From positions 1-11,392 of the forward strand of contig JABWCP010000048.1 in assembly GCA_013360215.1 (NCBI GenBank): 11,392 nt of DNA, written 5' to 3'. Positions 1-11,392 of the stretch are shown one piece after another. Position 1 is the stretch's first letter. Every line of letters begins with the position of its first letter. This DNA comes from a bacterium (lineage in GTDB: Bacteria; CLD3; SB21). The notes below the pieces were generated by a model, which had not been told where the DNA came from, did not search any database, and saw only the letters and a program-made list of their open reading frames with translations. Both the position numbers and the translations under genes were made by a program.

Positions 1-83
1 TACGATCGGTCCGGTGGTCGTCGAACATCTCCGTAAAATCACCAAACTTCCGCTGGATGTTCATCTTATGATCGTCGAACCCG
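1..83 (+). repeat. Left copy of an 83-bp direct terminal repeat
   Basis: These bases are identical to the last 83 bases of the window (11310-11392), base for base and in the same orientation. Both copies lie inside the same part of the rpe reading frame (Thr45 to Pro71 of the right-hand gene). Because the repeat coincides exactly with both window edges, it may be a k-mer-sized assembly overlap from a circular or looped graph path. A true genomic duplication is also possible; it could be longer, but nothing beyond the edge can be seen. Confidence 0.97.
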
Positions 84-130
84 AAAAATATATCACCGCA
101 TTTCGTGATGCCGACGTAGATTTTCTCTGA
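2..130 (+). pseudogene. rpe: Internal fragment of ribulose-phosphate 3-epimerase ending in a premature stop
   Basis: The frame opens at the window edge and encodes 42 residues of Rpe, beginning [10 protein letters not shown]. It includes the DVHLM motif, whose His is a metal ligand in this family. Rpe similarity continues past the 83-bp repeat for about 15 codons (EKYITAFRDADVDFL, compared with the usual EKYI.AF..AGAD). A TGA then stops it, where the family normally reads on for about 130 more residues, including the second catalytic Asp. After the stop, in-frame FHH and LIKRIFSK followed by L..N faintly recall the family's FHxEAS...LIK...K..L..N, with stops and an apparent frame slip between them. 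That would fit a decaying 3' end but could be chance. If the window is joined end to end, the product would be 86 residues and inactive. Whether this is a real pseudogene or an assembly product cannot be settled here. Confidence 0.75.
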
Positions 131-244: not shown

Positions 245-275
245 AAAAAAGGCTGTGGAAAATTCCACAGCCTTT
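245..275 (-). terminator. Intrinsic terminator of the minus-strand operon
   Basis: Bases 248-275 are a perfect inverted repeat with 13-base arms (AAAGGCTGTGGAA and its complement) and a 2-base centre. Read on the minus strand, the GC-rich stem GGCTGTGGA/TCCACAGCC is followed directly by six T's. It lies about 55 bases past the stop codon of the last gene of the minus-strand operon. Confidence 0.85.
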
Positions 276-331: not shown

Positions 332-2164
332 CTATTTAAAAGCATTCTCACATAAAACTTCATAGGGATCCATCACCATGCCGCGTGAACTGCGATACAG
401 CACGCCATATGAGTTTCCCGCATAATCTTGGGTAAAATTCATATACTCTACAATACATTTTCCTTCTTCATTTTTGAAAATAACAGCGGCTTGTATGGTG
501 CGGTTCAAAACGATACCCGTGATTTCATTTCTCTGGACATACCAGGTTGGATCGGTTTGGATAACTCTGACGACATGGAAACCTTCTGATTTAAGAACGG
601 CCGTCATATTTTGTTCAATCCCTTTATCAGCAGCCTTTGCTTTGGGTGGAAGTGCATTTTGAATTTTAGATTTCGCGAGAGCGCCTGATAAAGTTTTGTA
701 ATTATCCTGACCTTCGGAACAGTCAAGCTCAAACGTGCCCCATGCAACCTCCTGATCGTTTGCAAAAAGGCCAACTTTGATAGTGTGGTTTCTTGGTGAC
801 AATTCACTGAATAATTTTGCAAACTCTGCTGCCACTTCCGGCCTCTCTGTCTGCTGAGGATCGGGCGTCATTTCAACTTCTAATGTAGTTTCTTGCATCT
901 TGGGATGATCCGACTTGACAATATATTCCCCAGTTTTGTTTGCCGTCCAAGGCGTTAAAATCCCACCTTCCGCAGGATCGACGTAAACCGCTATGGTAAT
1001 TTTCGGGCTCATACTACCATATTTGGATAGTTCCTTGATTGTGCTCTTGAAATACGCCATGGCATAGATATTTTCTCCGGCTGTAAAGGAACTTTGAGCG
1101 GTCGCAGATGTTTCTTTTTTCAGCACGATACGTGTTTTTGAAAACACAATTTTACCACGATTAGTTTTATGAAAGTCGCTAGTGTATAAAACTGAACCCG
1201 GTTCTGCGTTGATTTTATCATACGCAGACTGTGCATCCTTTCGCAGTTTTTGAATATTGATCTCATCTGGAGTTACCAAAAGCACCGCTTCCGCCATCAA
1301 CACGGCAATTTCTGCCTCCTGGACAGCCGTTGAAAGCCCGGTCTTTCCTTTTGCTTTTTCTGCATAAGCCTTTTCAATGTGCGCATTCACATCAGCGATA
1401 TAATATGTTTTCAGAAATACCTGAAATTTCGGCACAAATTCTTTGGTCAAAAATGTCACATACGTATCATTTCTAACCTCTTCATCCGTTACCTCTTTTT
1501 GAATCCGTCTTAGAATCGAAGGATAATTTAATTTTTTACATCTATCGTAAAATTCCTGCGCTTCCTCAAGCGTCAGATACGTTGCTTTTCCGTATTGGAC
1601 CAATTCATCTCCGGTCATCCATGCTGTGTACAAGGCGTCGGACAGCCCCATATTGGCCTTGCCATCCTCCTCAAGCGACGAAAACTGCTTTTCAAAACCA
1701 GCCAGCCGTTTGGTATATGAAGTCAGATTTAAATCGGGGAATTTTATTTTCGTCTCATCGATTAGAGCCCGCGCCGATTCGATTTTTTCTTTTGCTTTTG
1801 AAGCCTGTTGATCAAATGTGGCGCTTGCCAGACGATCCTTAAGTAAAGAAAGTTCATTTTCAATTAACTTCAAGCTACGTCCTATCTTCGCAGCAGCCAG
1901 AGAATCGTCGCTAATACCGGTTTGATTGTCATCTTTTTCCGGGTTACTCGACTGGACAGTTTCTACAGTTCCCGAAGCGCCTTTAACCTCTTTTACTACT
2001 TCCTTCGCATCTTTTTTTTTCTCCGGTTTCTTTTTTATGGCGGCGCCTTCGATTTTCTTTTTGGATAATTGTAAAGACAAGACATGAACTCCGGCTCTTC
2101 TAAACACAGGTCTTTCTGCCGCTAAAAGCGAGCTTGTTAAACACAAGATGATGACCCATTTCAT
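332..2164 (-). CDS. Secreted Lys-rich coiled-coil protein of unknown family
   Basis: The 610-residue product has a typical signal peptide (MKWVIILCLTSSLLAA, likely cleaved before ERP), so it should act in the periplasm or outside the cell. Residues 35-60 form a Lys/Glu-rich linker with a run of KKK motifs, and 60-85 are polar and disordered-looking. Residues about 88-170 and 255-320 are helical with heptad-like Leu/Ala spacing and probably form coiled coils. The C-terminal half (about 325-610) looks globular and beta-rich, with blocks such as KITIAVYVDP, HTIKVGLFAND and WYVQRNEITGIVLNRTI; the last block and the following EEGKC...MNFTQDYAGNSYG stretch look like one compact domain. I do not recognise the family. 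The ATG has an AGGAAAAG ribosome site a few bases upstream. It is the last gene of a three-gene operon, 41 bases after the TPR lipoprotein and followed by a strong terminator. A structural or cargo-binding role at the cell surface would be a guess. Confidence 0.85.
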   Translation of the reverse strand: MKWVIILCLTSSLLAAERPVFRRAGVHVLSLQLSKKKIEGAAIKKKPEKKKDAKEVVKEVKGASGTVETVQSSNPEKDDNQTGISDDSLAAAKIGRSLKLIENELSLLKDRLASATFDQQASKAKEKIESARALIDETKIKFPDLNLTSYTKRLAGFEKQFSSLEEDGKANMGLSDALYTAWMTGDELVQYGKATYLTLEEAQEFYDRCKKLNYPSILRRIQKEVTDEEVRNDTYVTFLTKEFVPKFQVFLKTYYIADVNAHIEKAYAEKAKGKTGLSTAVQEAEIAVLMAEAVLLVTPDEINIQKLRKDAQSAYDKINAEPGSVLYTSDFHKTNRGKIVFSKTRIVLKKETSATAQSSFTAGENIYAMAYFKSTIKELSKYGSMSPKITIAVYVDPAEGGILTPWTANKTGEYIVKSDHPKMQETTLEVEMTPDPQQTERPEVAAEFAKLFSELSPRNHTIKVGLFANDQEVAWGTFELDCSEGQDNYKTLSGALAKSKIQNALPPKAKAADKGIEQNMTAVLKSEGFHVVRVIQTDPTWYVQRNEITGIVLNRTIQAAVIFKNEEGKCIVEYMNFTQDYAGNSYGVLYRSSRGMVMDPYEVLCENAFK

Positions 2165-2205
2165 TTGACTTTTCCTTTCTATGGTGTTTTTAGATAAGAA
2201 ACCGA

Positions 2206-2796
2206 TTAACGATATTGTGCGTAGAGCATTTCCAATCTTACCAAAATAAGCGCAGGATCATTGGAGGGTATCCATATCGGATCCAATTCATGAATCACAT
2301 CATTACAAGCGTTATAATTTCTCAGGTGAAACAAGCTATAAGCCTGATGAAGTTTGATATCTGATATGTTTATAGACTTGTCATGCGAAAAAATATACTC
2401 AGGATCCCTCCTTCTGACGAATTGCGAAGCTTCAATGGCTTGGGTAAAATGATCCTGCCGCCACTTCACAAATACGCTGCCTGCGTAACCGTCCGTTAGC
2501 GAATCCGCAGCGACAGATTCAAAAAAGGCCTCAGCCTCGGGAAAACTATCCATTCGCAACGCCGTCCATCCGAGTCCAACAACGGCCTCTGGCCTTTCTA
2601 TTTCACTAAAAAGCGCATAGGCTTCACTATATGCTCTCTTCTCATATTTTTCCCACGCCTCTTCCAACGGACTGATCGGATCCTCACAAGAAAGTATTAA
2701 CATCAAAAGGATCAGGGCCATGATCGACATAAACGTTGTGAAGATTAGCCCATCGATGAATGCAGCTTTGTTTTTCGAATCGAAATGAAACGACAT
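2206..2796 (-). CDS. TPR-repeat lipoprotein
   Basis: The 196-residue protein has a hydrophobic segment (residues 17-36) ending in LILSC, a lipobox-like site with Cys37 as the likely lipidated residue. The mature part would start CEDPISPLEEAW. About four helix-pair repeats of TPR type follow: AWEKYEKRAYSEAYALF (47-63), AVVGLGWTALRMDSFPEAEAFF (71-92), YAGSVFVKWRQDHFTQAI (104-121) and LHQAYSLFHLRNYNACNDVI (149-168). It is therefore probably a small membrane-anchored scaffold facing the periplasm. The n-region before the hydrophobic core is unusually long (about 16 residues). Met23 would give a more ordinary lipoprotein signal, but only the ATG at 2796 has a good ribosome site (AAGGA, about 7 bases upstream), so I keep the longer form. 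It starts 18 bases after the beta-helix gene and precedes the secreted 610-aa gene by 41 bases. That context suggests it assists export, anchoring or assembly of those two proteins, but this is inference. Confidence 0.85.
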   Translation of the reverse strand: MSFHFDSKNKAAFIDGLIFTTFMSIMALILLMLILSCEDPISPLEEAWEKYEKRAYSEAYALFSEIERPEAVVGLGWTALRMDSFPEAEAFFESVAADSLTDGYAGSVFVKWRQDHFTQAIEASQFVRRRDPEYIFSHDKSINISDIKLHQAYSLFHLRNYNACNDVIHELDPIWIPSNDPALILVRLEMLYAQYR

Positions 2797-2814
2797 AAGT
2801 TTTTCCTTTTTATG

Positions 2815-5800
2815 CTATTTGATGAGTAGCATTTTTTTGGATATCGTACCCTTGCCGGTTTCCAATCGGTAAAGATAAATTCCACTGCTCACTGGCTCTC
2901 CCCGGTTGTTTTTTCCATCCCAAAAAACTTCATGATACCCTGCAGGTTTGTTCTCACTGATCAACGTGGTGATTGTTTGTCCCAGTATATTATATATGAC
3001 GAGACGTGTTTTCCCGTCTTCAGGCAGACCAAACCGTATGGTCGTCGAAGGGTTGAATGGATTGGGATAGTTTTGAGTCAATTCGAGTTTTTGAGGTATG
3101 ATTACTTCAACGGGATCATATACCAGTGCGTACAAACCTGATCGATAGATTGTCGCTGCAATTTTTTCATGCTCTGTACTTACATTCATACCGGCATGGA
3201 CGGATGAGATTTCCTGTATGGATAATTTTTGTGCGTCAAAACACCCAAACTCCTGCTGTATGAATTGTATGTCTTCCTTGTAATAATTCATCGCCAGCTT
3301 CAAGGACACGGCTTCGGTCATGATCACTTCTACCGATCGTATATACCGCTTATCCGATTTTATTTCGCGGGATTCCTGAGTCGATAAAAACACATAACCG
3401 CCTGATCCGGTGTAATTTTTTAACTGCCTCAATTCAACTGACGATGACGTTAGAGTCATCCATCGGTTTTTGGTCAACTCACCAACATCGTAATTTTTAG
3501 ACACTTCTCCGCGATTCCCGGCAGAATCAGTTCCCGCAAAATTCAGAGAAAGCACTCCTGCCGATAACATCTTGTGGTCCGTTGAAAAAATCCGGGTACT
3601 TCCGGATACGGCCGTTGTTGCTTTATTTGAATTATTGACTCTAATAACTACAAATGAGAGTCCCTCGTTGCTGGTTCCGTAAATCTCCACCTGATCTTTC
3701 AAAATTGTACTTCTCAAAACTCCGATGGACAAGATCGGCGATATATTTTCGAGCCCAATACCCGACAACGGCAGGCGTATCGGGGAGCCCGCTCCATTAT
3801 GGAAGATGTTCACTGTGTCGGTCAGAATACCCTCTACAAGCGGTTTAAATCTGATAGTGAGTATGAGTGAATCGGAAGTAATCGTGACAGGAAGAACCCA
3901 TGGAAGAATTTTAAAATGTGTCCCTTTCTCCAAAGAAATTGCGGTTACGGACACAGGACTCTGCGGCGCTTTGATCGTAACGGATGCAGATGAACTGTCT
4001 CCGATACGAGCATCGCTAAAACTGCCAATCGCTCCGGTTGAAAGAACTCGGTTTACTCCGGTGCCGGTGATATAAACATCCAGTTTCCTCACATCGTAGG
4101 TTGCGCGTATCGTATCAATGAAATTTCCGATAGCCGTAGGCTTAAACTTGATGAAACCTAACAGAGTATCAGGATGTAAAATATCCAGTGTATCGATGGA
4201 CGGTCCGATAAATTGAAAGGGCGTACTATGCAAAACTGAAAAACCCGAAATCAGACTGCCACCTTCCGAATAAAAACGTATCGGCAAAATCAGGCTGTCC
4301 CCGATATGAACATTTCCCATCGGAAAAAACGCATCCGGCGAATGATGTTTTGCAAATAAATCAGCCGTTGCCGTGACGTCGATCCGGTTTGAAAAAACGG
4401 ACGAGTTCGCTGCACTGTCTTGTATCGCCGTAAACGTATGGCCAACGTGCACTTCGCCTGTATGAAAAGCCCAATCACCGGAAGGCGTGGCCGTGGTCGC
4501 ACCAGCATAATATCTCGCCTGTGTCAGACCTGTACTATCCCTGAAAACTTCGATTTTAGCATTAGGCGCCGACTTACCCCAGATTGTTCCTGAAGTCAGG
4601 CCACCCCAAATTCTGGGAGGTTGAATCCCTTTTTGAGAACCTGCATCTACTTTGAGGATACCGCCGTTGACATTTTTAAAAATTAAATTCTGACTCCAGC
4701 GGATGCTGTCTGATTCAGCATCTTCCAAATACATTCCGTAAAACCCGTTATACGCGATCGTGTTATTATTGACCGTAACACGGGAGCATCTAAAGTTTAT
4801 TAAAACACCAGCTCCATCATTGCTTTGCGCACCGATTCCGTTTGAGTCTGTACCTATTAAATTATTCTGAATCAAAACTCCCGATGACCGGTTTATCGTG
4901 ATCCCATGCCCGCTACTTCCGCCTATGACGTTGTTGGTGAGTACAGTATTCTTAGACGAATCAATAAACACGCCTGTACCCCCGAAAGCGGCACTGCGAA
5001 TAGCATTTCCATTTTTCCCAAGCCCTATATAATTGCCGGATACCCAATTGGTGTCAGAATGGGCGAAGAACCCAAGTTGAATATTGATGAGGCCTCCGAC
5101 GATATAATTTCTACCATTCGGACTACCATTCCCGATTCTATTATGCCTGCCGTAGATATTGATTCCTCGATCGAAACCATAAGAAGCCGTTCCGTTGATA
5201 TCCGTTCCGATCAAATTGGATTCGATGATATTGGAGTCAGCGTTTAATGAAATGCCTGATCCCAGTGTAACTTGACCTGCAAATACGTTATTTCGAATGA
5301 TCCCACCGGATCCGGATTGGAATAGGCCACTTGCGTTGGCTTTCAATGTCGTTCCGTCGGCAGCCAGGCCGATCACGTTGCAATTTAACGTAAAGTTTTT
5401 TCCTGAATTGACAATCGCAGAACTCATCATGCCCGTAAAATAATTAACGCCTGACGCTGTCCCGTCGCCGACGGTGAGGTTATCGGAGGAATTGGAAATT
5501 CCCGAATTCCCTGCAAACGAAGTACTTCCGTTGGCGCCTAATCCAAAATAATTTCCATAAATCATATTGTTTGCAGACGTGGATGTTATGTTGACTCCGT
5601 CCGTGCTTGCCCAAAAGATATTCCGCCCTCCGGGCGTTCCGTTACCGATTTGAGTAAATGATCCACCGGTTATCCCTATGCCAAAGCTCACATTGCCAGG
5701 AGCATTACCTGTGGAATCCGTACCAAAATAGTTTCCAAGAAAGCTACAGTGATGAGAAAACATCATATCAACTGCATTTGCAGCATATCCGAAAATATTT

Positions 5801-6732
5801 CGCCCGGCCGTTGTGCCATTACCAATCTGAGTATAATTGCCGGGATCAATCGTAATTGCACCGAATGGCGGTTTAGCGGGTGTTTTTCCGTCCGGATAGA
5901 GGCCAAAAAAATTTCCGGCAACAAACGTGCTGTCTCCAATTAAATACACCGGTGTTGTATAAGAACCAATCACATTCCTTCCGGCGTAGGTTCCATCACC
6001 GATTTTGTTGGCATTCCCATATACGAACAAGGCCGAGTTACCATAAACGGTATCGATTATTGCAGCGTTTGCCGAATTGAAACCAAATTTGTTTCCGACG
6101 ATCAGACTCCCCCTACCGGTATTTTCTGCAAAACCTGTTCCTAACCTGATGTCGGTGAACTGGCTTGCGGCAAAACGATTGCCGCGAATCGTATGATAAC
6201 CAGCCGAAGCGTCATCAACCCCCATAAAATTCGTCACAACATCGTCACCGGAAGTCACACCAAATTGGTTATTGAGGATAGATGCCCCGGATTGAAGCAG
6301 GAAGATGGCAATATTACATCCGGTAAAAATATTGGCAGAGATGATAACATTTGGCGCTTGTACACAGACTGCAAACCGAGCCGCTGTAAAATTAAAACGG
6401 GTTATCGTGGTGTTTGCTGCTTTTACGGTAAAAATCGTATCTAATGACGGTTGATCGGATGTAAGCGTTATCGCATATCCATACCCGTCTATAAAAACTT
6501 CATCCGTTATGGAGATCGCACCTGCAGTGAGTTTCAAAGTATCCCCAACCGCAAAAAGAATATTATCTGGTCCCGGGTTGATATTGGCCAGATAAACAGC
6601 TTTTCGCAGAGAACCGATCGAACCGGGTGCAAGACTATCACCGAAATTGGTGACAAAAAACGTGTCGGCATAAATCCCAGAATGCCCGGCTACAAAAAGA
6701 ATAAAAATGTACAGCCGCCCTAAACAATTCAT
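2815..6732 (-). CDS. T9SS-exported right-handed beta-helix surface protein
   Basis: This is a 1305-residue exported protein; numbering is from the ATG at 6732. A signal peptide (MNCLGRLYIFILFVAG, cleaved near IYA/DTFF) is followed by the entry motif of CSLREA-type beta-helix proteins (VTNFGDS...GSLRKAV..AN..PGPD). A long right-handed parallel beta-helix spans about 60-695, with repeated GRNIFG and GNYFGTD..G motifs. Next come an Ig-like unit (about 705-790), two choice-of-anchor D-like domains (about 795-895 and 896-995), another Ig-like domain (about 996-1085), a beta-rich domain ending RSGLYALVYD, and a FlgD-like type A sorting domain (about 1216-1305: NYPNPFNPSTTIRF, YNILGQ, WDGKNNRGE, SSGIYLYRL, KKMLLIK). 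That last domain sends proteins through the type IX system. An in-frame GTG 12 bases upstream (6742-6744) overlaps the GGAGG ribosome site and would add MEEV before the signal peptide, so the ATG is preferred. Beta-helices of this type occur in adhesins and polysaccharide lyases. I see no lyase active site, so adhesin or glycan binding is a guess. Confidence 0.92.
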   Translation of the reverse strand: MNCLGRLYIFILFVAGHSGIYADTFFVTNFGDSLAPGSIGSLRKAVYLANINPGPDNILFAVGDTLKLTAGAISITDEVFIDGYGYAITLTSDQPSLDTIFTVKAANTTITRFNFTAARFAVCVQAPNVIISANIFTGCNIAIFLLQSGASILNNQFGVTSGDDVVTNFMGVDDASAGYHTIRGNRFAASQFTDIRLGTGFAENTGRGSLIVGNKFGFNSANAAIIDTVYGNSALFVYGNANKIGDGTYAGRNVIGSYTTPVYLIGDSTFVAGNFFGLYPDGKTPAKPPFGAITIDPGNYTQIGNGTTAGRNIFGYAANAVDMMFSHHCSFLGNYFGTDSTGNAPGNVSFGIGITGGSFTQIGNGTPGGRNIFWASTDGVNITSTSANNMIYGNYFGLGANGSTSFAGNSGISNSSDNLTVGDGTASGVNYFTGMMSSAIVNSGKNFTLNCNVIGLAADGTTLKANASGLFQSGSGGIIRNNVFAGQVTLGSGISLNADSNIIESNLIGTDINGTASYGFDRGINIYGRHNRIGNGSPNGRNYIVGGLINIQLGFFAHSDTNWVSGNYIGLGKNGNAIRSAAFGGTGVFIDSSKNTVLTNNVIGGSSGHGITINRSSGVLIQNNLIGTDSNGIGAQSNDGAGVLINFRCSRVTVNNNTIAYNGFYGMYLEDAESDSIRWSQNLIFKNVNGGILKVDAGSQKGIQPPRIWGGLTSGTIWGKSAPNAKIEVFRDSTGLTQARYYAGATTATPSGDWAFHTGEVHVGHTFTAIQDSAANSSVFSNRIDVTATADLFAKHHSPDAFFPMGNVHIGDSLILPIRFYSEGGSLISGFSVLHSTPFQFIGPSIDTLDILHPDTLLGFIKFKPTAIGNFIDTIRATYDVRKLDVYITGTGVNRVLSTGAIGSFSDARIGDSSSASVTIKAPQSPVSVTAISLEKGTHFKILPWVLPVTITSDSLILTIRFKPLVEGILTDTVNIFHNGAGSPIRLPLSGIGLENISPILSIGVLRSTILKDQVEIYGTSNEGLSFVVIRVNNSNKATTAVSGSTRIFSTDHKMLSAGVLSLNFAGTDSAGNRGEVSKNYDVGELTKNRWMTLTSSSVELRQLKNYTGSGGYVFLSTQESREIKSDKRYIRSVEVIMTEAVSLKLAMNYYKEDIQFIQQEFGCFDAQKLSIQEISSVHAGMNVSTEHEKIAATIYRSGLYALVYDPVEVIIPQKLELTQNYPNPFNPSTTIRFGLPEDGKTRLVIYNILGQTITTLISENKPAGYHEVFWDGKNNRGEPVSSGIYLYRLETGKGTISKKMLLIK
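4825..6093 (-). repeat. Seven or eight diverged ~59-codon units in the beta-helix gene
   Basis: Motifs of the form N-[YFVL]-[FI]-G-x(4)-G recur at residues about 214, 274, 334, 394, 452, 506, 567 and 624. IG[ND]G[TS]xxGRN motifs recur at about 244, 303, 362, 420 (as VGDGTASGVN) and 533. The spacing is 54-61 residues, mostly 58-60. One unit is therefore about 177 bases, probably two to three helix coils. The DNA of the units is well diverged, so the copies are old or selected only at protein level. Confidence 0.8.
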
Positions 6733-6737
6733 AACTT

Positions 6738-6742
6738 CCTCC
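6738..6742 (-). promoter_or_regulatory. Shine-Dalgarno site that sets the start of the beta-helix gene
   Basis: GGAGG on the minus strand sits 5 bases before the ATG at 6732. The alternative GTG start at 6744 overlaps this site and has no comparable site of its own, which decides in favour of the ATG. Confidence 0.8.
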
Positions 6743-6827
6743 ACCTTGTGATGATATCAAACACATTCAAGGTAGATAGAAATCGAGATGAGCTCTAACA
6801 GCCAGCGTTCAAAAACTGACACTCTGG

Positions 6828-6857
6828 TTGCATCATAGTGCAAACTGTTGTTTTATA
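6828..6857 (-). promoter_or_regulatory. Possible promoter and operator ahead of the three-gene operon
   Basis: In the 148-base gap between the sensor gene and the beta-helix gene, the minus strand has a -10-like TATAAA (6852-6857) with no good -35. Just downstream, about where transcription would begin, lies the inverted repeat TTGCA-N6-TGCAA (6828-6843). No clear terminator follows the sensor gene, since the repeat makes only a 5- to 6-bp hairpin with no adjacent T-run. Read-through from the sensor gene is therefore possible. The remaining bases of the gap hold nothing I recognise. Confidence 0.25.
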
Positions 6858-6880
6858 AGAAAATTGTGGGGGCAGTAAGA

Positions 6881-9800
6881 TTAGAATTCTGAAGGATTTT
6901 TACCAAATTCCTCACGAAAACATTTGGTAAAGTAGGATAAATTATTAAAACCGACGTCAAATGCCACTTGGGAAACGTTACCGGCGTTCTTTTCGAGCAT
7001 AATTTTTGCCTTTTTGAGGCGCCACTTCCGGATAGTATCGGTTGGGTTCATACCGGTCAGCGCGATCATTTTTCTGTAAAGTTGCGACCGGCTCATCAGG
7101 AGTTGTGCGGCCATATCCTCAACGTTAAAATCCGGATCAGTAATATTTTCTTCCAAAACTTCCTGAACACGGCTCATAAACAAATCATTTACATTTTTTA
7201 CATCATAGATCGCTTGTCCGGAAAAGAACGTTTTGCTGTATTTTTCGATGAGCGTCTCACGAAGGCGGATGCAATTATTGATCCGGGTCTTTAGTTCGCG
7301 CACATTGAATGGTTTGACAAGATAGTCATCGGCACCGGTTTCCAGTCCCTCTATTTTATTATCTTCAGACGCCTTAGCCGTCAATAAAATCACTGGAATA
7401 TGATTGGTTCGCATATCCTTTTTGAGTTCACGCGAAAGCGCTACGCCGTCTTTTTTGGGCATCATAATATCACTGATGATCAGATCAGGCACGAGCGAAA
7501 CAGCTTTATCAAACCCCTCGACGCCGTCACGAGCTTCGGAGATTTGAAATTCTCCGGAAAGATGTTCTTTGATGTAATCGCGGACGTCTGGATGATCCTC
7601 CACGATCAAAATAGTTTTCCCCCGATATTCAGAGTTCGTATCACTTACCACATTATCGTCCGACCAATCCGCCTCGGCGTCCCATTTGACGGTTCGATCT
7701 GCTTCGATTGATTTCTCTTCATCAGGCCATACTTCCGGATTCAACGGCAGGTGCAGCGTAAAAGTTGTGCCCCGATGCAACTGACTCACGACTGTCAGGC
7801 GACCGTGATGCAGTTCAGACAATTGCTTGGCAAGGGCCAGACCAATACCTGTTCCAGGATACTCGCGCATTTCTGAAGAATCCACCTGATAAAAACGGTC
7901 GAAAATTTTTGTTATATCAGATTCCGAAATTCCAACGCCTGTATCGGAAACGTTGATCTGAATATGATCGGAGTCGCGCTGAACAGAGACACGTACTTCT
8001 CCTTTTTGAGTAAACTTGATCGCATTGGAAATCAAATTAAATAAAATTTTTTCTAAAAATTCACGGTCACGGTAAAATTCCGGCAGATTGTCCTCAAGTT
8101 TTAATTTCAGTTCAATGCCTTTGCGGTCAGCCAGCGAAGAAAACGCATGTACCACTCCTTTCATAAAATTCAAGTCACCGAGGCACGCGTTGGGTTTCAG
8201 CTGATGATTTTCAATTTTAGATATGTCCAGCAGCTGATTGACAAGCCGGAGCAATCTTTTGCCATTGCGCAAAACCATATCCGCCATGGGCCATGCGGAA
8301 GGTCCGGACCTGAGTTCCTCCAACGGCCCGAGAATCAGCGTCAAGGGGGTTCGAAATTCATGTGAAATATTAGCAAAGAATCTGGATTTGATCTCGTCCA
8401 TTTCTTCCAGTTTTTTGGCTTGCTCCTGAAGTTGACGTGTTCGCACCTCGACAATCCGTTCTAATTCTGCTTTTTCAGCAAGTATTTTTCTGGATCGAAA
8501 TTGCACGCCACCCCACCAAGTTAAACCCAGCAAAGTCACATAAAGTAAATATGCCCACCACGTGCGATACCACGGAGGAAGCACTGTAAAACGGACGTGG
8601 CTATCCTGGCTAACGTGCCCTAATACATTGCGGCTGCGAACTGAAAAAACATACGTACCTTCGTAAAGATTGGAATATTCTTTTGTGTTTTCTTTTGACC
8701 AGATTGACCACCCTTTATCGGTGCTTAATTTATATTGAAATTCCGTTTCTTTTTCATCCACAAATGAAGTCGAACCATACTCAATACGAACCTGCGTCTG
8801 ATCATATCCCAACGTGAGATTGTCGGGAATCGCATTCCCTTGAAATAAAACCGAGTCGCGCCCAATCCCAAAAAAAGAGATAACGGTCGAATGTGACGGA
8901 AAAACATGTTTCAGTTTTTGATCATATCGAATAACACCACTCGTCGTTGAAAACCAAATGACGCTATCGCGATCCCTAAGCACATAGTTGAGGGCTGATC
9001 GTTTGGCCAGCAGGGCTATTCGACTAAATGTCTGACTATCCCATTGCATTGTGGCGGCAACTTGTTTTCCACGAAATAACTTTGTCGGTGTGCTCACCCA
9101 AATATCGCCGAGCATATCCGTAATGGCATACGTGATCGGCTCCGATTCATTCCAAAGCCGTGTATCACGTACAAAACTTGATTGAACAGTATCATAGCTG
9201 AAAATTCCTGCCCTGCAGGCAATCCAGGCGGATGCTCCCCCGCCGATAATTTCGAGATTTTTATTTTCCGACGAAAGATTTTGACCAACGGATACGATTG
9301 TTTCAGAATTCAAATCCATGTTTATGATTTCGTTTGCGCCCGATCTTATCCAAAATTTACCGGGAGTACCTTTGAAGATTTGAAAAATACGCCCTTTCAA
9401 AGCGGGAACGACATTTTTTATTTGCTTTGACTTGATATCAATAATACAAAGGCCGTTATTTTTTCCTAATAACCAGCGGCCATTCTCAAGCTCACAATAA
9501 CTGTAAGCGTTGACTTCAGCATCCCACGTTGTAACTTTGTTTGAAGCATCGAAAATCTTAAGGCCATTTACAGTCCCCAATAAATGGATCTCACCGATCG
9601 GTACCGACCAATACACGGCACCGATCCCAAATGCTTGCGTATGATTTTTATGAAGTTCATAGAGGTCATTACCGGTGCCGATAAATAAATTATCGCCTTT
9701 ACGAAAAATGCAATTGACCCCGCTTTTGAGTCCTTGTTCTTTTTGTAAAAAACGAAAAGACGACAATTCAATTTTATTGACCCCATCCTCCGTCATCACC

Positions 9801-10693
9801 CACAAATTCCCTTCTTGATCTTCCAAAACACCATTACATGCGTTTGCAGAAAGGCCCTCTTTTTCTGTGATTTCATCGACGACTTGCAGTTGATCATTCA
9901 GAATAACCAATCCGCTTGTAAACGAGCAGAAAGCAAATCCGCCATGTTTCAACCGGATACCGCTGTGAATATACTTAAGAGGATAAATCGGCCGGATATC
10001 GCCTTTATCCCATAAAATTAACCCTTTTTCGTGCGAGCCAATCAGGGCACGGTTACTGTCGAACCGGAAAACGCCATAAGTGCCGTCTTTTTTCGAATAT
10101 TTTGAAAATGGAGCTTCGACGATGGAGTCGCCCGCTAGTTCAAAAATCGCATATTGCTTCTGTTCGTCCCTTCCTGTGATTGTTATTTTCCCGCCGTTAT
10201 AATACAAAACGCCAAAACTTTTTTTACCAGCTGCGATAGTAGTAAACGTTTGATTTTTCCATCGGTAGATACCCGACCGGCATACAAAATATACCGCTGA
10301 ATCTATAACTGCGACTGAACGTACGCCCCCTGCAATAGCACCTGAAGGAAGTTTATCGAGTAAAGACACCCTTCGGGGTTTTCCATTGGTAAATTCGATA
10401 TATCCCAAATCGTTCGGTCCATCGTAATATAATTTACCCTGAGCATCAAATTCCGTCGCACGAATCGGACCGCCGCTGATTTCAAATTCGTAACGCCATG
10501 TCACACCATCATAGGAATAGAATGCATTTCCATTGGAAAGGTATAAAATACCTGACGGGGCTTGTACGATTTGCCAGTTTTGGGGATGAGTGCCTGGATG
10601 GTAAACTGTGATCTTTGGAGCTATGGTCTGACCTGATACTAATCCGAAACGAACTAGTAAAAAAAGTAAAAATGTTTTTTTGAGATTTTTCAA
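6881..10693 (-). CDS. Hybrid two-component sensor/AraC-type regulator (HTCS)
   Basis: This 1270-residue protein carries a whole signalling pathway. A signal peptide (1-21) leads a periplasmic sensor of Reg_prop-type propeller blades (about 25-620; for example DQEGNLWVMTEDGV at 292-305 and RDSVIWFSTTSGVIRYD near 575-591). A Y_Y_Y domain (about 636-703), one membrane helix (about 712-732) and a short coiled coil follow. The kinase has H-box FFANISHEFRTPL with phospho-acceptor His778, N-box LFNLISNAIKF (Asn890), G1 DTGVGI (917-922), F-box IFDRFYQ and G2 GTGIGLALAK (947-956). The receiver has acidic pair Glu1032/Asp1033, phospho-acceptor Asp1075 (SDIMMPK), Thr1105 and Lys1127. An AraC-type helix-turn-helix (about 1170-1270) ends in GKNPSEF. 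All key residues are present, so it should be active. The start is TTG, with an in-frame stop five codons upstream and no ribosome site; the signal peptide supports it. Such proteins usually control nearby operons, here probably the three genes downstream. No SusC/SusD genes are in view and the ligand is unknown. Confidence 0.95.
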   Translation of the reverse strand: MKNLKKTFLLFLLVRFGLVSGQTIAPKITVYHPGTHPQNWQIVQAPSGILYLSNGNAFYSYDGVTWRYEFEISGGPIRATEFDAQGKLYYDGPNDLGYIEFTNGKPRRVSLLDKLPSGAIAGGVRSVAVIDSAVYFVCRSGIYRWKNQTFTTIAAGKKSFGVLYYNGGKITITGRDEQKQYAIFELAGDSIVEAPFSKYSKKDGTYGVFRFDSNRALIGSHEKGLILWDKGDIRPIYPLKYIHSGIRLKHGGFAFCSFTSGLVILNDQLQVVDEITEKEGLSANACNGVLEDQEGNLWVMTEDGVNKIELSSFRFLQKEQGLKSGVNCIFRKGDNLFIGTGNDLYELHKNHTQAFGIGAVYWSVPIGEIHLLGTVNGLKIFDASNKVTTWDAEVNAYSYCELENGRWLLGKNNGLCIIDIKSKQIKNVVPALKGRIFQIFKGTPGKFWIRSGANEIINMDLNSETIVSVGQNLSSENKNLEIIGGGASAWIACRAGIFSYDTVQSSFVRDTRLWNESEPITYAITDMLGDIWVSTPTKLFRGKQVAATMQWDSQTFSRIALLAKRSALNYVLRDRDSVIWFSTTSGVIRYDQKLKHVFPSHSTVISFFGIGRDSVLFQGNAIPDNLTLGYDQTQVRIEYGSTSFVDEKETEFQYKLSTDKGWSIWSKENTKEYSNLYEGTYVFSVRSRNVLGHVSQDSHVRFTVLPPWYRTWWAYLLYVTLLGLTWWGGVQFRSRKILAEKAELERIVEVRTRQLQEQAKKLEEMDEIKSRFFANISHEFRTPLTLILGPLEELRSGPSAWPMADMVLRNGKRLLRLVNQLLDISKIENHQLKPNACLGDLNFMKGVVHAFSSLADRKGIELKLKLEDNLPEFYRDREFLEKILFNLISNAIKFTQKGEVRVSVQRDSDHIQINVSDTGVGISESDITKIFDRFYQVDSSEMREYPGTGIGLALAKQLSELHHGRLTVVSQLHRGTTFTLHLPLNPEVWPDEEKSIEADRTVKWDAEADWSDDNVVSDTNSEYRGKTILIVEDHPDVRDYIKEHLSGEFQISEARDGVEGFDKAVSLVPDLIISDIMMPKKDGVALSRELKKDMRTNHIPVILLTAKASEDNKIEGLETGADDYLVKPFNVRELKTRINNCIRLRETLIEKYSKTFFSGQAIYDVKNVNDLFMSRVQEVLEENITDPDFNVEDMAAQLLMSRSQLYRKMIALTGMNPTDTIRKWRLKKAKIMLEKNAGNVSQVAFDVGFNNLSYFTKCFREEFGKNPSEF

Positions 10694-10727
10694 TAGAGGA
10701 GGTTTTCAAATTCAAAAAATTTTTTCA

Positions 10728-10756
10728 TATATAAATACAAATCGATCGCAAAGCAA
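10728..10756 (-). promoter_or_regulatory. Candidate promoter of the sensor gene
   Basis: On the minus strand, TTGCTT (10751-10756) is followed after 17 bases by TATATA (10728-10733). Transcription would start near 10721, giving a leader of roughly 28 bases before the TTG start codon. The short leader has no SD; instead CCTCCTCT lies directly before the start. The -35 is weak but has the same form as the rpe promoter candidate. Confidence 0.45.
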
Positions 10757-11119
10757 AATAATTTTCGATGTCCAAATCGGAAAACCCGGATTTTATTGCA
10801 ACCCCGAATTTTGTGGAATGCTTTGGAGAGGAAAGAATTCGAAATTGGACTTAGGTGATGCAGATTAATTTATCGCTTTTTTTTTACTAATCTTTCACCA
10901 CGTCGGGCGCCAGAGATAACCATTAAGACCAAATTGATCCTCAGGCGTTAGCTCAGGGATTTACATACAAATCATCTTTTATAAAGCAGAGGAAGCTCAG
11001 AAATCGATCCTACGATCTACTACAATAATGCAATTGAAAATATCTTGTCGGTATTTACAGCCAAATTTAACCTTCAAACTCTCATCTTTTTTTAGGAAGT
11101 TTGGAACACCACTTCCCCG

Positions 11120-11148
11120 TTGCTTATCCCGCGCAATATTCATAAAAT
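11120..11148 (+). promoter_or_regulatory. Candidate promoter of rpe
   Basis: TTGCTT (11120-11125), 17 bases, then TAAAAT (11143-11148), a good -10. Transcription would begin near 11155, about 24 bases before the rpe ATG. No SD is visible in that short leader. Confidence 0.45.
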
Positions 11149-11178
11149 AGCTTCTGAATAATTAACTGTTTTATATTT

Positions 11179-11392
11179 ATGCCCATCATTGCACCTTCTA
11201 TTTTATCGGCCGATTTTGCCAATCTTTCGCGGGATATTCGCATCGCCGAAGAATCCGGTGCGGATTGGATTCACGTCGATGTGATGGACGGAAGTTTTGT
11301 ACCTAATATTACGATCGGTCCGGTGGTCGTCGAACATCTCCGTAAAATCACCAAACTTCCGCTGGATGTTCATCTTATGATCGTCGAACCCG
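11179..11392 (+). CDS. rpe: Ribulose-phosphate 3-epimerase, N-terminal part (cut by window edge)
   Basis: The enzyme interconverts ribulose 5-phosphate and xylulose 5-phosphate in the cytoplasm, in the pentose phosphate and Calvin pathways. The 71 visible residues match the start of this TIM-barrel family closely: APSILSADF (5-13), then [17 protein letters not shown] with metal ligand His32 and catalytic/metal Asp34, and DVHLM with metal ligand His65. The family is about 215-230 residues long, so roughly two thirds are missing, including the second catalytic Asp. The ATG fits the usual N-terminus exactly, a few residues before APSILS; no ribosome site is seen. It is transcribed away from the sensor gene. 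Its last 83 bases are repeated at the left end of the window, where the frame runs only 15 codons further before a stop. It is therefore uncertain whether the gene continues intact beyond the right edge. Confidence 0.93.
11310..11392 (+). repeat. Right copy of the 83-bp direct terminal repeat
   Basis: Identical to bases 1-83. It begins with the last base of the Ile44 codon of rpe and runs to the end of the window, so the true length of the repeat cannot be seen at either end. Removing one copy would leave a closed sequence of 11309 bases. Confidence 0.97.

What the first reader, a model, noticed from the sequence alone, without database searches (positions are those of the whole stretch)
1..83. 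Window closes on itself through an exact 83-bp repeat inside rpe
The first and last 83 bases are identical, in the same frame of the same gene, and end exactly at the window edges. An arbitrary cut from a chromosome would not do this. Options: (a) a circular contig or assembly-graph loop with k-mer overlap; (b) a chromosomal segment flanked by a partial and a complete rpe; (c) an excised or amplified circle formed by recombination at rpe. No replication, integrase or transposase gene is present, which argues against a self-replicating element.
Basis: partly seen in the sequence, partly recalled or inferred. Interest (0 to 1): 0.6.

Follow-up and report, generated by a model that had tools for sequence, protein, structure and literature searches.

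The report
Contig-end overlap at duplicated rpe fragment
The matching 83-base ends are a by-product of how the assembler cut the genome at a gene fragment present twice (part of the sugar-metabolism gene rpe), so they are no evidence for a circular DNA molecule; the segment is most likely an ordinary stretch of bacterial chromosome between a broken and a whole copy of rpe.

Summary
In detail: bases 1-83 and 11310-11392 are identical. The window is the whole of contig C48 of a 56-contig, 3.72-Mb genome. The same 83-mer also ends contig C8 and starts contig C46. C8 and C48 share their last 99 bases, and C48 and C46 their first 99. Ends sharing exactly 99 bases recur throughout the assembly (28 of 44 detected end pairs), so the assembler's k-mer was 99, not 83. 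The exact repeat is 115 bp, and 83 = 2x99-115. A k=99 de Bruijn graph of C8-C48-C46 in line regenerates the window base for base, and so does one with C48 excised as a circle. An isolated circle would give 11408 bases and a 99-bp overlap. The closure is graph geometry and says nothing about circularity.

Beneath it is a real partial duplication of about 317 bp: the rpe promoter plus about 82 codons. Synteny supports C8 and C46 flanking one locus. C48, a sensor-kinase/T9SS cassette with a collinear paralogue on C33, most likely sits between them as chromosomal DNA behind a truncated rpe. One residue (Arg in the C8 copy, Ser in C48) weakly favours the other phasing, so excision or strain mixture is not excluded. 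Interest is low.

The parts
1..83 (+). Left copy of the 83-mer; also the end of contig C8 and the start of contig C46
1..99 (+). k-mer (k=99) shared with the start of contig C46: right-arm end of the graph
1..130 (+). 3' part of the truncated rpe copy; homology to intact rpe to about base 116 (98%), then decay; in-frame stop at 128-130
248..275 (.). Near-perfect palindrome around GGCTGTGGAAAATTCCACAGCC; terminator-like, between the convergent 3' ends of truncated rpe and the 610-aa gene
   Evidence: self-match on the opposite strand; sequence; function inferred
332..2164 (-). 610-aa protein, no Pfam or NCBIfam family; paralogue on C33 (46-47%)
2206..2796 (-). 196-aa lipoprotein-like protein with TPR-like appearance (by eye; no Pfam hit); 14 matches in this genome including itself
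2815..6744 (-). 1309-aa right-handed beta-helix protein with T9SS type A sorting domain
6881..10693 (-). 1270-aa hybrid two-component sensor: propeller repeats, HisKA, HATPase, receiver, AraC-type HTH
11106..11392 (+). Promoter region plus 5' part of rpe (ATG at 11179), 96.5% identical to the end of contig C8
11294..11392 (+). k-mer (k=99) shared with the end of contig C8: left-arm end of the graph. With the 16 bases that follow the 83-mer (window 84-99) it makes up the 115-bp exact repeat
11310..11392 (+). Right copy of the 83-mer

Best explanation
The closure is an assembly effect at a real partial gene duplication. The genome holds two copies of the rpe promoter plus about the first 82 codons, identical over a 115-bp core. 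With k=99 the graph collapses the core into one 115-bp node with two incoming arms (C8, end of C48) and two outgoing arms (start of C48, C46). Every arm is clipped to 99 bases of the repeat, so the two ends of C48 overlap by 2x99-115 = 83. Most likely the chromosome reads C8, then a truncated rpe, then C48 (four-gene sensor/T9SS cassette), then an intact rpe continuing into C46. Shown: k, the node, the four arms, the truncation. Inferred: the linear order and the way the partial copy arose. The likeliest route is one homologous exchange in rpe on one side of incoming or duplicated DNA and illegitimate joining on the other, leaving a 5' rpe remnant.
For: Window = all of C48; the 83-mer is also at the end of C8 and the start of C46, and nowhere else in the genome. 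Shared ends are exactly 99 on both sides, giving an exact repeat of 115. Contig ends throughout the assembly share exactly 99 bases, and C56 shows the same topology with 89 = 2x99-109. A k=99 graph of the linear order yields unitigs of 115 and 11392, with the window reproduced base for base; an isolated circle would give 11408 with a 99-bp overlap. The left end of C48 carries a decaying, stop-terminated rpe while C46 carries an intact 3' part. Synteny: in relatives rpe-CoxM-like-purD-amidase is conserved, with FG-GAP and dacB upstream of rpe, and the C8-tail gene abuts hisS; in this genome FG-GAP abuts hisS on C39, the reciprocal of C8-tail next to rpe, so C8 and C46 flank one locus. C48 holds no replication or mobility gene.
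Against: The graph cannot tell the linear order from C8-rpe-C46 plus a C48 circle. Codon 39 (ATG = codon 1) is CGT (Arg) in the C8 arm and AGT (Ser) in the C48 arm; among 79 homologues in 80 loci, Arg occurs 56 times, His 14 and Ser 0, and all six relatives have His. So the C8 arm looks more like the functional 5' half, weakly favouring C8-rpe-C46. There are no reads or coverage. An unbinned contig could add further arms.
Confidence: 0.78

Rival explanations
1. The direct repeats recombine in part of the population: C48 is chromosomal in some cells and an excised, probably non-replicating circle in others, or strains with and without the insertion were co-assembled, so that both pairings exist.
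For: The unitig set is identical to that of the linear insertion. The Arg/Ser difference favours C8 pairing with C46. The 115-bp core is the longest mismatch-free run in a 317-bp homologous span, which could reflect recent exchange, but random placement gives this in 7.5% of trials.
Against: No positive evidence of a junction. With k=99 as the last step, reads were probably too short to span 115 bp (inference), so failure to resolve is expected without any mixture. No recombinase or replication gene.
Confidence: 0.17
2. C48 is a free, self-replicating circular element (plasmid or phage) closing through its own ends.
For: Terminal identity alone.
Against: An isolated circle in a k=99 graph would overlap by 99 and be 11408 long, not 83 and 11392. 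Both ends are shared with other chromosomal contigs. No replication, partition, mobility or phage structural gene. The gene set has a collinear chromosomal paralogue on C33. No match to the 610-aa protein among 72,556 plasmids.
Confidence: 0.03
3. C48 is a contaminant contig from another organism, binned wrongly and linked only by a conserved rpe stretch.
For: Tetranucleotide correlation with C8, C46, C33 and C39 is 0.93, 0.90, 0.91 and 0.82, no higher than with related genomes.
Against: 99 bases shared exactly with C8 and with C46, and 96.5% identity over 287 bp including non-coding promoter, against 70-78% to other genomes of the family. C33 itself correlates only 0.88 with C39.
Confidence: 0.02

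Closest known systems
De Bruijn graph repeat node (two-in, two-out) with contig ends overlapping by k
   Same: Arms on each side share exactly k=99 bases; the collapsed repeat is longer than k; contigs break on both sides of it
   Different: Nothing essential; because the repeat lies between k and 2k, the flanked contig appears to close on itself with 2k-r bases
Circular contig called from a terminal k-mer overlap
   Same: Identical sequence at both contig ends
   Different: The overlap is 83, not k=99, and the end sequences are shared with two other contigs
Partial gene duplication flanking an insertion, as could be left by homology-facilitated illegitimate recombination (process described in PMC3240628) or single-crossover integration
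   Same: Direct partial copies of a host gene flank foreign or duplicated DNA; one copy intact, one truncated
   Different: Neither the donor arrangement nor an empty site in the same species was available; mechanism inferred only

Membership tests
De Bruijn repeat node artefact | Both arms on each side share exactly k bases with the same k as elsewhere in the assembly | tested here: met
   99 bases at C8/C48 and C48/C46, and 99 in 28 end pairs of the 56-contig assembly
De Bruijn repeat node artefact | Graph built from the proposed sequence regenerates the contig exactly | tested here: met
   11392-base unitig equal to the window, 115-base node
Circular element | Terminal overlap equals k and ends are unique to the contig | tested here: not met
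   Overlap 83 against 99; ends shared with C8 and C46
Circular element | Replication or mobilisation genes | tested here: not met
   None in Pfam, NCBIfam or PHROGs scans of the four main ORFs
Circular element | Raised or distinct coverage; reads crossing the junction | not testable with these tools
   No reads or coverage held
Insertion flanked by partial gene duplication | Two direct copies of the target, one truncated | tested here: met
   About 317-bp homologous span, 11 mismatches; left copy decays after base 116 and stops at 128-130
Insertion flanked by partial gene duplication | Both flanks adjacent in a genome lacking the insert | tested here: inconclusive
   No congeneric genome held; family relatives keep an older order, and the reciprocal junction on C39 implies C8-rpe adjacency
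Homology-facilitated illegitimate recombination | Donor with C48-promoter-rpe order | not testable with these tools
   No donor genome found; relatives carry FG-GAP upstream of rpe

The most novel reading that the evidence does not exclude
The 115-bp core of the two rpe copies is an active recombination site, and the 11.3-kb sensor/T9SS cassette is reversibly excised, switching the promoter and 5' part of rpe between two versions (Arg39 and Ser39).
Probability: 0.05. Interest if true: 0.5.

Novelty: not a real feature. Interest (0 to 1): 0.1.

Why it matters
It gives a simple arithmetic test for false circles in short-read assemblies: an end overlap smaller than the assembler's k, equal to 2k minus the repeat length and shared with other contigs, means a collapsed repeat and not a closed molecule. 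Pipelines that call circular contigs from any terminal identity would miscall this contig. Biologically it shows only an ordinary partial duplication of a housekeeping gene next to a paralogous sensor/secreted-protein cassette.

Tried and rejected
k=83: rejected, since shared contig ends are 99 everywhere. Other copies of the rpe fragment in the genome: only the four arms exist. C48 genes near rpe in relatives: none beyond a short kinase-domain match. Plasmid matches to the 610-aa protein: none. Rfam and tRNA scans, in case of an att site or RNA: none. Pattern searches (DVMDG-Ser/Arg-FVP) in the phylum to settle the phasing: only nine genomes are held and only this genome matches, so uninformative. 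Clustering of mismatches as proof of gene conversion: P=0.075, not significant. Paper searches gave a definition of homology-facilitated illegitimate recombination (PMC3240628) and nothing specific on terminal overlaps below k.

Full report
The first and last 83 bases of the window are identical and no longer terminal overlap exists. The window is not a cut from a larger sequence: it is the whole of contig C48 (11,392 bp) of a 3.72-Mb, 56-contig genome rated 100% complete. That explains why the repeat coincides with the window edges.

Where else the 83-mer lies settles the matter. In the same genome it is also the last 83 bases of C8 (174,888 bp) and the first 83 of C46 (12,662 bp), and it occurs nowhere else. 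C8 and C48 share their last 99 bases; C48 and C46 share their first 99; together these make a 115-bp exact repeat. I fetched both ends of all 56 contigs. Of 44 detected end pairs, 28 share or overlap by exactly 99 bases, which identifies the assembler's last k as 99. In such a graph a repeat of length r between k and 2k becomes one node with two arms on each side. Each arm reaches k bases into the repeat, so the contig between the two copies overlaps itself by 2k-r: 2x99-115 = 83. Contig C56 shows the same pattern with 89 = 2x99-109.

I tested this by building k=99 graphs. The order C8-C48-C46, joined through the repeat, gives unitigs of 115 and 11,392 bases plus the two flanks, and the 11,392-base unitig is the window letter for letter. 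A chromosome C8-C46 plus a C48 circle gives exactly the same set. An isolated circle gives 11,408 bases with a 99-base overlap, which is not what is seen. With k=119 the linear order would have assembled into one piece. The apparent closure is thus a geometric consequence of the repeat and carries no information on circularity.

The repeat itself is real. Comparing C8+C48 with C48+C46, homology runs about 317 bp, from about 70 bp upstream of the rpe ATG to about codon 82, with 11 mismatches. The path into C48 then decays and meets a stop at window 128-130; the path into C46 completes a 220-residue ribulose-phosphate 3-epimerase. So one 3' part is broken (C48 start) and one intact (C46).

Which left arm goes with which right arm cannot be read from the sequence, because the 115-bp core is identical. 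Three lines bear on it. First, synteny. In the family relatives rpe is followed by a CoxM-like gene and purD, and an amidase where the contig reaches it; FG-GAP and dacB genes lie upstream in all five relatives whose contig extends that far (G005's ends too early). The gene at the end of C8 abuts hisS in G001 and G002. In this genome FG-GAP abuts hisS on C39, the reciprocal junction, which implies that the C8 end and rpe (C46) became neighbours in this lineage. C8 and C46 therefore flank one locus, with C48 between them or absent. Second, C48 has no replication, integrase, transposase or phage structural gene, and its four genes have a collinear paralogue on C33 (35-47% identity; one extra gene lies between there), so it looks chromosomal. 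Third, and pulling the other way, codon 39 is Arg in the C8 arm and Ser in the C48 arm. Of 79 homologues, 56 have Arg, 14 His and none Ser, which weakly suggests that the C8 arm belongs with the functional 3' part. I weigh this as a hint for excision or a strain mixture, not as proof.

Most likely mechanism: a segment carrying the cassette and an rpe 5' region entered or was copied into the locus, by homologous exchange within rpe on one side and illegitimate joining on the other, leaving a truncated rpe to the left and a complete rpe to the right. Homology-facilitated illegitimate recombination is described in PMC3240628. The 3.5% divergence of the left part would fit allelic divergence between strains. 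This step is inference; no donor or empty site was available.

As a finding it is an assembly artefact over an ordinary partial duplication.

Noticed in passing
window 332-10693; C33 (locus L245) 8692-20000: The four genes of C48 (hybrid sensor with AraC output, beta-helix T9SS protein, small lipoprotein-like protein, 610-aa protein) have a collinear paralogous set on C33 (35-47% identity); the small protein has 14 matches in this genome and several in every family relative, suggesting an expanded family of sensor/secreted-protein cassettes with no named family for two of its members.
   Followed up: partly
C39 (locus L242) 8463-11167; C8 end (L010); G001 and G002 loci L243, L244, L132, L134: Lineage-specific reciprocal rearrangement: relatives have FG-GAP next to rpe and the C8-tail gene next to hisS, whereas this genome has FG-GAP next to hisS and the C8-tail gene next to rpe.
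   Followed up: yes
contig C56 (locus L246), ends shared with C34 and C45: A second contig (3020 bp) appears to close on itself, with an 89-bp overlap, inside a sensor gene that has a paralogue on C34: the same graph effect with a 109-bp repeat.
   Followed up: yes
window 11293-11295 (rpe codon 39): Ser at a position that is Arg, His, Val, Lys, Gln or Cys in 79 homologues; the C8 copy has Arg.
   Followed up: partly
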